Position numbers and translations under genes: made by a program. Positions 57,760-62,840 of a DNA stretch of 64,000 bases are shown here, piece after piece; the first letter of the stretch is position 1; each line of letters begins with the position of its first letter. The notes beneath the pieces are model-generated. The model had not been told where the DNA came from and did not search any database. It saw nothing but the letters and a program-made list of their open reading frames with translations. Source of the stretch: Leptodactylus fallax (lineage: Eukaryota; Chordata; Amphibia; Anura; Leptodactylidae); assembly GCA_947044405.1 (NCBI GenBank), contig CAMRHE010000358.1:186001-250000 (forward strand), in the 5' to 3' direction.

Positions 57760-58186
57760 TGTGACAACTTGGGGAATTAGACTCAAAATGGCGGCTTTTC
57801 CTGGTCCGGACAGCGGTGGCTCGTGGTACTGGGCGCCGGAAAGATAGTGTTCAGACGGTCCAAGTGTAAAATAAAACTGGCTTTATTCAGTTTAACTGCA
57901 ACATAACAAAACAACAAAAAACCTAGGCCACAGTTAGGGCACTAACTCACTCCTTGAGCCCCTAACTAACCGGACTACTGCTCAGCTCCAGCAACAGTCC
58001 CCTGTGGACCCCAGCCCTTCTGGGACAGAGCGTCTCTCTCTGTCCTAAGCTGGTCCACCATCTCCTGCTCCCTGCAGGATACTCCAGCCTTCTGGAGTTA
58101 CGCGCCCCACCCAAAGGTGTGGCTGAGGGCCTTTTCAGGGCTGGCCTGGGTCGCTCCCTAGCGCCCTCTAGGTTCACATACTCACA
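57760..58186 (-). repeat. 3' LTR of element B
   Basis: 427 bp, about 98% identical to 62414-62840 by eye (roughly eight or nine differences). In sense orientation ctgaataaagcc supplies AATAAA. It contains caaaatggcggc, a perfect YY1-type core. Its right flank, in sense gagggggagggta, is the polypurine tract. Confidence 0.93.
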
Positions 58187-58202
58187 TACCCTCCCCCTCA
58201 GC
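58187..58202 (-). promoter_or_regulatory. Polypurine tract of element B
   Basis: Sense sequence gctgagggggagggta abuts the 3' LTR and matches the tract of element A. Confidence 0.85.
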
Positions 58203-58221
58203 TCACTACCCATGGAGTGAG

Positions 58222-59601
58222 CTACAATGGGACGAGTCCCTCTTCAACCATGCATGCCTGTCCAGTGTCTCTCCAGAAGTCCCAATCTGGCGGTTTCTTC
58301 TTCCAAATTCCGCTCCATCGAGTTTTCCGTTTTCTTCTCACTTTAAATGCTACGCCAAGATCCTGGCCATTCTGTGCAAAGGCAAGTTTTACTTCATCAC
58401 CTTCACAATTCGCCATACAGGGGATCGCATCATTTTCATCCCATTTCTCGCCATAGTCTTCAGCCATCCCATTGCATGACTTTGATTCCTTTGGTGAATA
58501 GCCGTAAGAATCTTCATCTTCTCCTATCATGAATCCACAAGAGCTCAGAGACCAACTAACACGTACTTCATGCACATCAATGTCTTTAGAGTATAATTGT
58601 TTCACGGGTACTTTTTCCATAACCTTCATCTCAAAGCAAACTTTGCCATCACCATCAAGGCTTAGAAGTTTAGGAGACATAGGCTGCTTGCTCTTCTCTT
58701 TGTTTGAGATACACAAGCTCTGTACTGCAATATCTTCTCCTTCTGCACGAGGGCCATACCGTACACCCTCACATAATAGATCACGCTGAACTACATTTTC
58801 TGGCATGTCTTTAACAACTGTCACATCATTGGTGACATGTAACCATCTCTTACTTCTGCATGCAAATGACGGCTGCTCAGTCTCTGCATTAGAACCTCTA
58901 CCACGGTTACTTCCATTAGTTAGGGACATAGCAACATTGTATCTCAGCCTCTTCTTGTTGCTACTAGCATCAGGCGGTAAAACAACTTCTGCCTCTTCTC
59001 TTCTTTTTGGGTTGACTGTATTACTTCCTGACTTCCCCTTCACAGACAACATGGAGTCATTATTCACCATTTGTCCGCCAGACATTTGGCTAGAGACAGG
59101 CACAGCAACACCTTTATCCACAATGGCTTCAGACACTTTAGCTGTTGGGACAACATATGCGTGGTCAGTCTTCTTACGGACTCTTGTTCCACACTTTTGA
59201 TGGCCCTTCACCTTATTTACCATCTCACAGCCCTCTAGGCTTTGGACCTCATTGGTTTGAAGCTGGACCCACTCTGTCACAGGCAGTGTGTGACCAATCA
59301 CAGTTTCTTCTGCTGTTGGACCTTCTTTGGCCTCCTCACATTTTGCAGGAAGTCCCCCTTTAGCAGCATCTTCCTGGGGAACTATACCCTCTACTTGACG
59401 TTTTACCAAATCACGTGGTTTCATCATAATCTGATCATTGGCATAAACATCAGTGGACAGTTCTATCTGACTTAATGATTCTCCTTTCTCTGCCTCTATG
59501 CTGGCAGCTTTCTCCACTTCTAACGCCTTCTGTAGCGCACAAATCTCTGATTCCAGCTCCGGAACTTTCTTCATTGACGCATTTTTCTGTGCAGCTTCCA
59601 T
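58222..59601 (-). pseudogene. Unknown segment plus hnRNP U-like SPRY domain in element B
   Basis: 459 codons without a stop. Residues 1-40 continue the coiled coil (ELESEICALQKALEVEKAAS). Residues about 45-255 are unrecognised and differ from element A. Residues 258-300 (NDVTVVKDMPENVVQRDL...) are again shared with A. Residues 316-421 are the SPRY domain: GKVCFEMKVMEKVPVKQLYS, VRVSWSLSSCGFMIGEDEDS, AEDYGEKWDENDAIPCMANC and NGQDLGVAFKV. The tail GIWKKKPPDWDFWRDTG matches A. A 459-codon open frame is long for a dead element, so it may have been maintained until recently. Confidence 0.87.
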
Positions 59602-59612
59602 CTCAGTTTTTA

Positions 59613-59831
59613 CTAGTGCACCTTGCAGCTCTGATCTTTAGAGGTTAACAGGTTCTGCAGCGAGTCTCTCTCAGCTTCTAGTGCTGCCAGCTTTGAAGAT
59701 AGTGCAGATGCCGACTGTTCAATATTGGATAAAGACTGCTGCAATCGATCCAATTCTTCTCTTTTAGATTCCACTTCGGTTTTTAACTGTTCAATCTGAA
59801 AAGTGCGCTCTTCCAACTTTATTTCTGACAC
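59613..59831 (-). pseudogene. HIP1R-like remnant in element B
   Basis: FQIEQLKTEVESKREELDRL and LEAERDSLQNLLTSK match the start of the HIP1R-like part in A (about its residues 113-166). Sequence then jumps to the point corresponding to 'LQVAIVKTEMEA' in A, removing some 225 residues including the I/LWEQ start. Short shared blocks at the two sides (agctgc/atctgc) could have guided the deletion or a template jump. Confidence 0.8.
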
Positions 59832-60927: not shown

Positions 60928-61612
60928 GGACAGACAACATCTCCATCAATTCTTTGTCTTTATTTTGCACCAAAACAGACAACTTCTCATTATCTTCACA
61001 AGATCCTGACAGCGCCCTCTCCAGGCTACATATTCTAGCTTTGAGTTCCCTTTCTCTTTGTTCCAGAACTCCAGCTCTGCTTTGCCATTCGTGGATTTCA
61101 CCATTTAGGCGAACTTGATGCAAGTTTTGCTCTGACTGCAATGTCTGCACTACAGACTCTAAATCATTCTCTCGGTCAGACACCTCCTTCCTCAGCTCGG
61201 CAATTTCATTTTCTTTGTCAGTTAATGCAGCCGAAAGTTTTTCACACATCCTGACTTGGTCATCCAGACATTCTGACTGACTCTGCAAAAATTCACTTCT
61301 CTCATGTTTAGCAGTTTCAAGGTCATCTCTTAATTTTTCAATGACACTCTCTTTGGCAATGGAGTCTTGAACATGCTGCTCCTTTAAATCCTGCAACTGC
61401 TTCTCAAGCACTTGCTTTTGCTCTACACTCTGTATAACTTTATTAGATAGAGCACATTTCATTTCAGCAAACTCCTTATTAGTGACACAGTCCACTCCAG
61501 GCAAACCCAGTACCACATTTTCACAATGACTAGGATATAACCTCTTCATAGAGTCAAGCTCATTCTTTAACTTAAGGTTCTCTTTTCTGATACCAAAAGC
61601 TGCCATTTCCAA
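60915..61612 (-). pseudogene. N-terminal coiled coil of the element B chimera, main part
   Basis: Open frame with KQVLEKQLQDLKEQHVQDSI, LTDKENEIAELRKEVSDREN, LEQRERELKARICSLERALS and LVQNKDKELMEMLSVHAQ. The match to the same region of A is close. Source gene unknown. The frame runs on into shifted myosin sequence (60785-60914), so a frameshift lies at the myosin junction. Confidence 0.7.
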
Positions 61613-61920
61613 TCAGATATTTCATTCTCATACCTGAACCTGATGGTTTTAATCTCATCTTGAAGCTGTTGCACCATAATATTTTCATCTTTGGCGCTTT
61701 CATGCACTCCAGTATGAGACATATAGTCAGCAGGGACATATTCAATCATAGAACAGAAAAGAAAAACTGAGTCACCATCATGCAACCCTTTATCTTTACT
61801 TGCACTCCACATGATCTGTTCCAGGTTTTGTCTCTCTCTGCATTCAGACTGCTGCACTAATAAACCTGTGCATAACTTCTCTGCTTTTTTACAAGCTGAA
61901 ATTCTCTTTTTCTTGCCCAT
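61567..61920 (-). pseudogene. Start of the element B chimera
   Basis: ATG at 61920 (MGKKKRISACKKAEKLCTGL), 117 codons, same start as element A. A frameshift near 61580 (after YENEISDWKWQ) separates it from the coiled coil that follows. No Cys-His box or other retroviral gag signature is seen. Confidence 0.7.
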
Positions 61921-62393
61921 GGTTTACTAACAAGATTACACAATATTCCACAGCAACCTTGGGTTCAACCGGCAGCAACTTTTTGCTATCTTCTGCAGTC
62001 ACATGTATTCAAACAGTTAACTTATGTGGCACTACAACAACCAGCATTTTCTTCTGTCTTCCACAGAAAACACCAACATGGCACCATAGCCTTTCACATA
62101 GACTTGTTTGCAATATCCAGCTTCTATACACATTGCATACTTTCTTGCCAACAGCAAGCACTTTACAGACTTCGGTACCACAGTATACACAAAGTCCATT
62201 CCCTGTATTCCTCTTCCAGAGTTTTACTTTCACCAGTTTTTGCACACACTTTGCTATGTTGCAATTCACTCACCCCTTCCTGGGCTTCTCAGTTGAAATC
62301 ACCGATTTCTTCCAGCTGTAGGCCACAATGCACACTTAGCAGTACTGCAGTCACCAACCACTTGTCTTCCAGGACTTGCGTGGATCTCTTCTG
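61921..62393 (-). other. Leader region of element B
   Basis: Non-coding sequence between the candidate primer-binding site and the first ATG, similar to 32818-33209 in element A except for an extra block of about 60-90 bp (near 62140-62220). Confidence 0.6.
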
Positions 62394-62411
62394 CCCGAAT
62401 CCGTAGCACCA
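62394..62411 (-). promoter_or_regulatory. Candidate primer-binding site of element B
   Basis: Sense TGGTGCTACGGATTCGGG, two bases after the 5' LTR. It differs from the element A site by two bases. Confidence 0.55.
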
Positions 62412-62413
62412 TA

Positions 62414-62840
62414 TGTGACAACTTGGGGAATTAGACTCAAAATGGCGGCTTTTCCTGGTCCGGACAGCGGTGATTCGTGGTACTGGGCGCCGGAAAGATA
62501 GCGTTCAGACGGTCCAAGTGTAAAATAAAACTGGCTTTATTCAGTTTAACTGCAACATAACAAAACAACAAAAAACCTAGGCCACAGTTAGGGCACTAAC
62601 TCACTCCTTGAGCCCCTAACTAGCCTGACTATTGCTCAGCTCCAGCAACAGTCCCCTGTGGACCCCAGCCCTTCTGGGACAGAGCGTCTCTCTCTGTCCT
62701 AAGCTGGTCCACCATCTCCTGCTCCCTGCAGGATACTCCAGCCTTCTGGAGTTACGCGCCCCACCCAAAGGTGTGGCTGAGGGCCTTTTCAGGGCTGGTC
62801 TGGGTCGCTCTCTAGCGCCCTCTAGGTTCACATACTCACA
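62414..62840 (-). repeat. 5' LTR of element B
   Basis: 427-bp partner of the LTR at 57760-58186, in the same orientation, with the same AATAAA and caaaatggcggc features. Confidence 0.93.

What the first reader, a model, noticed from the sequence alone, without database searches (positions are those of the whole stretch)
57760..62840. LTR element mobilising a chimera of host-like genes (myosin rod, HIP1R, hnRNP U SPRY)
Between two 427-bp LTRs with a perfect atag duplication, the minus strand encodes non-muscle myosin II rod, a HIP1R remnant and an hnRNP U-like SPRY domain, all intronless, with no recognisable gag, pol or integrase. Retroviral transduction of single host genes is known; an LTR element built from at least three host genes is, to my knowledge, unusual. 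The lack of introns implies capture from spliced RNA by template switching.
Basis: partly seen in the sequence, partly recalled or inferred. Interest (0 to 1): 0.93.

Follow-up and report, generated by a model that had tools for sequence, protein, structure and literature searches.

The report
LTR element assembled from host genes
In a genome that is most likely a frog's, a repeated mobile element with no recognisable virus-like genes carries joined pieces of genes for myosin, HIP1R and hnRNP U, and copies that lack one or two of the pieces suggest that it most likely picked them up one after another from the host's messenger RNA.

Summary
Window 57756-62844 (minus) is a complete LTR element: two 427-bp LTRs (8 mismatches), TG...CA ends, a CTAT/ATAG duplication, a polypurine tract, and no gag or pol match in the ORFs searched. 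Its interior carries MYH9-like myosin rod (from residue 1245), a HIP1R remnant and an hnRNP U SPRY piece. The host genome was searchable (2.5 Gb, most likely a hyloid frog). I read 27 chimeric copies in full or part; 150 of 150 scored MYH9 hits (4176 candidates) are intronless and span the same junction. Copies at different stages suggest the order: (A) coiled coil with diverged myosin S2 plus hnRNP U; (B) HIP1R added; (C) MYH9 added. Filled and empty sites differ by clean insertions with a shared 7-10 nt motif at the edges. MYH9 presence splits the tree (19 of 19 against 0 of 4). Variation among copies shows no clear purifying selection, so the frame looks like cargo. Maize Bs1, with three host genes, is the precedent: a new variant of a known kind. 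Not shown: parent introns, the autonomous helper, the primer tRNA, the source of the N-terminal coiled coil.

The parts
62414..62840 (-). copy 1, 5' LTR (427 bp, TGTGAG...GTCACA, AATAAA at LTR position 300)
57760..58186 (-). copy 1, 3' LTR (427 bp; 8 mismatches to the 5' LTR, K2P 0.019)
62841..62844 (.). copy 1 target-site duplication (CTAT on minus), 5' side
57756..57759 (.). copy 1 target-site duplication (CTAT on minus), 3' side
62392..62411 (-). primer-binding-site-like stretch starting TGGTGC, 2 nt after the 5' LTR; tRNA not identified
   Evidence: sequence; similar stretch at the same place in L005, L019, L029, L030, L051, L052
58187..58199 (-). polypurine tract GAGGGGGAGGGTA directly before the 3' LTR
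   Evidence: sequence; similar in other copies
61921..62413 (-). untranslated leader (no conserved frame assigned)
60882..61920 (-). N-terminal coiled coil (N-CC), start MGKKKR, source gene not identified; its last part weakly colinear with myosin II S2
60094..60881 (-). MYH9-like rod, human residues 1245 to about 1512, stage-C insert
59887..60093 (-). coiled coil CC2; the same piece in copy 2 aligns best to MYH9 1007-1082 (13 of 2000 shuffles score as high); alone no significant PDB match
59633..59886 (-). HIP1R remnant (clathrin-binding coiled coil), shorter than in copy 2, stage-B insert
59479..59632 (-). short myosin S2 piece (human MYH9 ~1085-1135)
58830..59478 (-). linker of unknown origin (type 1; another linker in copy 2)
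58339..58650 (-). hnRNP U SPRY piece (L. fuscus residues 281-384, 84% identical)
58222..58338 (-). C-terminal tail, also in copy 2, L058, L060, L072, L073
33230..33618 (-). copy 2, 5' LTR (389 bp, LTR type 2)
29239..29626 (-). copy 2, 3' LTR (388 bp; 13 mismatches in 382 aligned, K2P 0.035)
33619..33622 (.). copy 2 target-site duplication CACC, 5' side
29235..29238 (.). copy 2 target-site duplication CACC, 3' side
31756..32817 (-). copy 2, N-terminal coiled coil; no MYH9 insert follows (empty site)
30697..31558 (-). copy 2, HIP1R insert with GAGGAAG at both edges
29792..30109 (-). copy 2, hnRNP U SPRY piece (90/106 identical to L. fuscus)

Best explanation
This is a multi-copy LTR retrotransposon without recognisable gag or pol genes whose interior carries pieces of hnRNP U, myosin II and HIP1R genes, most likely acquired in at least three successive captures from spliced host mRNA and predicted to be moved by the proteins of an autonomous LTR element not seen here. 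Shown: LTRs, TSDs, the shared joints, copies with neither, one or both of the HIP1R and MYH9 inserts in one genome, and clean filled and empty sites for both. Inferred: during reverse transcription in a particle that also held host mRNA, the enzyme jumped from the element RNA to a host mRNA at a short shared motif (GAGGAAG; GAAGTTGAGA) and jumped back at the same motif. Coiled-coil-coding RNAs are expected to be rich in such GAG/AAG codon runs, which would explain both why coiled-coil genes landed in a coiled-coil frame and why the joints keep the frame. Also inferred: the frame itself is cargo, because variation among copies is close to neutral.
For: Element anatomy. Best LTR hits, 40 scored of 4870 candidates: 22 adjoin the chimeric interior (15 of the 30, 7 of the other 10; window copy and paired LTRs included), 18 do not; of 15 such hits tested, 13 have a matching 4-bp TSD (4 of the 13 in AT repeats, where a match says little). 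TSD match in 7 of 10 LTR pairs (2 of the 7 in AT repeats) and in both window copies. HIP1R in 20 of 20 copies and the N-CC|MYH9 joint in 17 of 20. 150 of 150 scored MYH9 hits, window included, begin at query residue 1-8 and so include that joint, without introns. L060: N-CC and myosin S2 contiguous, no HIP1R, no MYH9, hnRNP U 181-384 ungapped at 94%, more hnRNP U than the HIP1R-bearing copies compared (c1, c2, L051, L052, L058, L072, L073). MYH9 in 19 of 19 LTR1-type and 0 of 4 LTR2/3-type copies of a 23-copy, midpoint-rooted tree that separates them (support 0.96 and 1.0). Filled and empty sites. Near-neutral variation: N:S 528:169 private, 175:59 shared, expectation 2.63, Fisher p 0.79; 62:18 and 13:4 in nine hnRNP U pieces.
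Against: No autonomous partner was found, and I ran no gag/pol family search on the flanks of the fetched LTRs. The parent genes were not located, so introns in them are taken from general knowledge. Only one copy (L060) shows the state without HIP1R; the other eight hnRNP U pieces were not read that far. The MYH9 left edge matches the motif at 8 of 10 bases only. 84 of 150 MYH9 hits keep an open frame of 700 aa or more and 28 of 1000 or more (runs of N may inflate some), and some pieces have dN/dS of 0.34-0.54 in the smaller set, which could be read as selection. L051 has no exact 4-bp TSD. CC2 alone gives no significant PDB match. The PBS matches no tRNA that I could name. Insertion by another route (gene conversion, DNA-level patching) would leave similar edges.
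Confidence: 0.85

Rival explanations
1. The fusion arose first as a host chimeric gene or trans-spliced mRNA and was taken up once as a whole.
For: Open frames of several hundred residues run across joints in some copies.
Against: Copies without MYH9 (4 of 4 LTR2/3-type that span the site) and one without HIP1R (L060) exist, with clean empty sites.
Confidence: 0.06
2. The chimeric protein is kept by selection because it serves the element, for example as a gag-like multimerising, RNA-binding protein.
For: 84 of 150 MYH9 hits have an open frame of 700 aa or more, one N-run artefact not counted. In the smaller set dN/dS is 0.34 (MYH9), 0.53 (part of N-CC), 0.53 (HIP1R) and 0.54 (tail); shared variants lie under the neutral ratio in MYH9 (21:12), SPRY (18:10) and the short myosin piece (12:6), on small numbers.
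Against: Overall N:S is at or above the neutral expectation for private and shared variants, and close to it in nine hnRNP U pieces; other pieces are near or above 1 (first part of N-CC 1.22, CC2 1.07).
Confidence: 0.12
3. LINE-type retrocopies (processed pseudogenes) that landed between LTRs.
For: Intronless pieces.
Against: No poly(A) at the joints printed; the pieces lie between PBS and PPT; 4-bp TSDs flank the LTRs; the same joints recur in copies at many sites.
Confidence: 0.03
4. MYH9-less and HIP1R-less copies are deletions between short repeats, and the full chimera is ancestral.
For: The same short motif at both edges would also be left behind by deletion; the tree is midpoint-rooted, without an outgroup.
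Against: L060 keeps more of hnRNP U (181-384, ungapped) than the HIP1R- or MYH9-bearing copies compared, and its coiled coil is colinear with myosin S2 836-1133 across both sites.
Confidence: 0.08

Closest known systems
Bs1 of maize
   Same: LTR element carrying segments of three host genes (PMC13317346 passages)
   Different: Plant; by recollection low copy and with gag-related sequence. Here a vertebrate, with at least 150 scored loci, no gag match, and copies at different assembly stages in one genome.
LTR-mediated retroposition in animals (Tan and coworkers, as described in PMC5408686, passages seen)
   Same: Template switching at microsimilarity between LTR-element RNA and cellular mRNA
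   Different: As described there, the products are retrocopies of a parental mRNA, with several switches possible in theory; here several genes accumulate in one line that kept amplifying.
Acute transforming retroviruses (recalled; E26, AEV and MH2 carry two host genes)
   Same: Host coding sequence between LTRs, dependence on a helper
   Different: No viral gene match here; several pieces; a genomic repeat family.
Veju/BARE-2 chimeric elements of cereals (PMC13317346 passages)
   Same: New sequence acquired by abnormal template switching
   Different: Donor there is another element or unknown DNA, not host coding mRNA.

Membership tests
LTR retrotransposon | paired direct LTRs with TG...CA ends | tested here: met
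LTR retrotransposon | short target-site duplication at independent sites | tested here: met
   CTAT, CACC; 7 of 10 LTR pairs; 13 of 15 LTRs without interior; some in AT repeats; not exact in L051
LTR retrotransposon | polypurine tract | tested here: met
LTR retrotransposon | tRNA primer-binding site | tested here: inconclusive
   TGGTGC... 2 nt inside the LTR, tRNA not identified
Non-autonomous LTR element | no gag/pol of its own | tested here: met
   no match in the minus-strand ORFs of copies 1 and 2 and the L060 frame given to Pfam
Non-autonomous LTR element | autonomous partner with matching LTR/PBS | tested here: inconclusive
   none seen next to the fetched LTR1 hits, but no family search of their flanks; the 8-kb LTR2 candidate was a chimera with nested insertions
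Bs1-like multi-gene transducing LTR element | fragments of three or more host genes between LTRs | tested here: met
Bs1-like multi-gene transducing LTR element | fragments lack the introns of their parent genes | tested here: inconclusive
   fragments are contiguous and intronless; parent introns not examined, search unanswered
Acute transforming retrovirus | retroviral coding sequence beside the host gene | tested here: not met
   none found in the ORFs searched of copies 1 and 2 and L060
LINE-type processed pseudogene | poly(A) tail and long variable TSD | tested here: not met
   4-bp TSDs outside LTRs; no poly(A) at the joints printed

The most novel reading that the evidence does not exclude
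A vertebrate LTR family is a serial gene collector. Coiled-coil-coding mRNAs share codon-run motifs with its own RNA, so reverse transcription repeatedly patches new coiled-coil domains into the same frame at the same kind of motif, and each enlarged form founds its own burst. The genome thereby keeps a step-by-step record of new multi-domain proteins being built, some in frames over 1000 residues long.
Probability: 0.4. Interest if true: 0.88.

Novelty: new variant of a known kind. Interest (0 to 1): 0.78.

Why it matters
Capture of host mRNA by LTR elements is usually seen as a finished product. Here empty and filled sites for two separate captures sit in one genome, so the order, the joint motifs and the later fate of each captured piece can be measured directly. 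It also shows that an LTR family with no recognisable gag or pol can reach at least 150 scored loci (4176 candidates) in what is most likely a frog, which raises the question of what packages and moves it.

Tried and rejected
Viral contig scan: no relative. The search for homologous proteins gave hnRNP U once, then timed out (26, 28) and was switched off (34, 36), so the N-terminal coiled coil could not be assigned. The idea that the hnRNP U gap in L051 is a skipped exon was dropped: two database proteins with alternative starts (P0034, P0044) suggest an exon edge at NCDLHF, five to six residues inside the gap. The idea that an 8-kb LTR2 element (L051) was the autonomous partner was dropped: it is a chimera with nested insertions. 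A 3267-aa frame around one MYH9 hit was dropped as an artefact: two of three pieces sampled there read N. Piece 60096-59833 alone did not match myosin significantly in the PDB; only with its neighbour contiguous (L060) does colinearity appear (E 8e-6; Pfam Myosin_tail 32.5 bits, under the 38.1 cut-off). Selection on the frame: not clearly supported. Literature: the listings (titles and starts of abstracts) of searches showed me no vertebrate LTR element with three host genes; the library lacks most subscription papers.
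Full report
Observation. On the minus strand, 62840-62414 and 58186-57760 are 427-bp direct repeats with 8 mismatches, TG...CA ends and the duplication CTAT (ATAG on plus) on both sides. A polypurine tract precedes the 3' LTR, and a TGGTGC stretch lies 2 nt inside the 5' LTR. The interior (4227 bp) has no gag, pol or integrase match in the minus-strand ORFs given to Pfam. It encodes, in order: a coiled coil starting MGKKKR; MYH9-like rod 1245-1459 (E 2e-80), continuing from 1461 to about 1512 by eye; coiled coil CC2; the HIP1 clathrin-binding domain; a short myosin S2 piece (E 1e-4); a linker; and the hnRNP U SPRY piece (87/104 identical to Leptodactylus fuscus). 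In copy 2 a HIP1R chain (1r0d, named HIP12) also matches. The best-scoring named hnRNP U relatives are frogs, the first four being Leptodactylus, Dendropsophus, Phyllobates and Rhinoderma (hyloid by recollection), so the host is most likely a hyloid frog.

A second copy in the window. Minus 33618-29239, TSD CACC, has the same order but no MYH9, a longer HIP1R and a different linker. Interiors differ by 3-11% by block, while the LTRs differ by 13% plus 108-109 gapped columns, so the interior is found with more than one LTR type.

The family in the host genome (G000, 2.5 Gb, window at C358). LTR query: 4870 candidates, 40 scored, all 95-100% identical. Thirty were fetched: 15 adjoin the chimera and 15 do not; 13 of the latter have a matching 4-bp TSD, 4 of these in AT repeats, and look like solo LTRs. 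Of the other ten, 7 adjoin the chimera and 3 do not. I saw no gag-pol interior next to them but ran no family search on their flanks. TSDs match in 7 of 10 LTR pairs tested; two of the other three are in tandem arrays and one sits in a TA repeat. LTR pair divergence: 8 of these 10 at K2P 0.012-0.019, the others 0.038 and 0.086 (the last in a tandem); window copy 1 0.019, copy 2 0.035, L051 0.028, L052 0.035. Pairs in L045, L049 and L058 were not tested. The LTR1 type therefore looks like a recent burst, and the few LTR2-type copies older. L051 has no exact TSD and L052 lies in an AT repeat.

MYH9 query: 4176 candidates, 150 scored, all single intronless matches beginning at query residue 1-8, which includes the joint with the N-terminal coiled coil; some contain stops. 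Open frames reach 700 aa or more in 84 and 1000 or more in 28 of the 150, leaving out one frame that is an artefact of N; other runs of N could inflate some. Two of these copies, read at the 3' end, carry the myosin piece, linker, SPRY and tail next to LTRs 88% and 75% alike to type 1 over the part read. hnRNP U query: 10664 candidates, 58 scored, mostly single intronless matches over residues ~176-386 at 73-92% identity, a few reaching 496-523.

Stages. L060 has N-CC, CC2 and the myosin S2 piece in one run without HIP1R and without MYH9, and hnRNP U 181-384 ungapped at 94%. Its coiled coil is colinear with human MYH9 836-1133 (E 8e-6). It is the only copy read that lacks HIP1R. Stage B (copy 2, L051, L052, L058; LTR types 2 and 3) has HIP1R and no MYH9; hnRNP U is shortened (L051 about 184-237 joined to 279-384; copy 2 281-386; L052 and L058 align like copy 2). 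Stage C (LTR1 type) has MYH9 as well. In a midpoint-rooted tree of 23 copies, MYH9 presence separates two supported groups: at least half of the insert in 19 of 19 LTR1-type copies, none in 4 of 4 others. L059, fetched only at its 3' end, is not counted.

Joints. HIP1R empty site (L060): CAGGAGGAAGATCTGCAAG. Filled (copy 2): CAGGAGGAAGTTGCATGC at the left, GTTGAGGAAGATCTGCAAG at the right. GAGGAAG is at both edges and nothing is lost. MYH9 empty site (L060, copy 2): CACAAAGAAGTTGAGAAAAACC. Filled (copy 1): CACAAAAAAGTAGAGACTC and GATGAAGTTGAGAAAAACC, the left edge matching the motif at 8 of 10 bases. Both are clean insertions. Support that HIP1R split a myosin stretch came before L060 was read: CC2 of copy 2 aligns best to MYH9 ending at 1082 (rank 1 of 299 anchor positions; 13 of 2000 shuffles score as high) and the next piece starts at 1086 (0 of 2000).

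Selection. Across 20 copies, private variants are 528 nonsynonymous to 169 synonymous and shared ones 175 to 59, against a neutral expectation of 2.63 that assumes a fixed transition excess (Fisher p 0.79). Columns covered by fewer than 6 copies were left out. By piece, shared variants lie under expectation in MYH9 (21:12), SPRY (18:10) and the short myosin piece (12:6) and over it in others, on small numbers. Nine hnRNP U pieces give 62:18 and 13:4 against 2.69. An earlier pairwise count with fewer copies gave dN/dS 0.34 (MYH9), 0.53 (part of N-CC), 0.53 (HIP1R), 0.54 (tail), 0.68-0.92 (four pieces), 1.07 (CC2) and 1.22 (first part of N-CC). On balance the frame looks like passenger sequence kept open by recency, but weak constraint on some pieces is not excluded.

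Mechanism. Anatomy, TSDs and copy number show retrotransposition by LTR machinery. With no gag or pol of its own, the enzymes must come from elsewhere (inferred; no partner found). Template switching at short motifs during reverse transcription is the model described for LTR-mediated retroposition (PMC5408686, passages) and fits the motif-flanked clean insertions. Return to the same motif in the element RNA is my inference, as is the role of GAG/AAG codon runs in coiled-coil mRNAs.

Novelty. Maize Bs1 took up parts of three host genes (PMC13317346, passages), so the kind is known. New as far as the listings of my searches show: a vertebrate family with no recognisable gag or pol, with at least 150 scored loci, and empty and filled sites for successive captures. 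The species, parent introns, helper and primer tRNA remain open.

Noticed in passing
window 18461-19210, 21289-21831, 26321-27400, 43957-45048, 53517-54014, 63043-63913: Several Tc1/mariner-like transposase frames, two of them over 350 aa (family name recalled, no search made; frames).
   Followed up: no
window 47502-50660 (+): Frames resembling a DIRS-type element: reverse transcriptase and a tyrosine-recombinase-like C-terminal part (recognised by eye only).
   Followed up: no
window 55407-57150: Repetitive stretch giving long G/K-rich frames on the minus strand; no repeat finder was run there.
   Followed up: no
L051:5287-7738: A gag-like frame with a zinc-knuckle-like motif (by eye) lies in sequence nested inside a chimera copy; L051:640-2205 holds a nested Tc1-like element.
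   Followed up: partly
G000 C165:1769092, C197:1757179, C31:4085938, C58:5029646: Intronless hnRNP U copies reaching residue 522-523, two of them (C31, C58) resuming at 566, so a related line may carry a longer hnRNP U piece with a shared internal gap; sequences not fetched.
   Followed up: no
L035 (C58) and L031 (C64): Tandem arrays in which neighbouring chimera copies share an LTR.
   Followed up: partly
L033, L034, L037, L039, L043, L047, L050 and copy 2: The copy-2 linker between the myosin piece and hnRNP U also occurs on LTR1-type copies, while others carry linker 1, which suggests recombination among copies during reverse transcription.
   Followed up: partly
L004, L020, L021, L023, L026, L033, L034, L050: Several insertions of this family lie in TA-rich simple repeats.
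   Followed up: no
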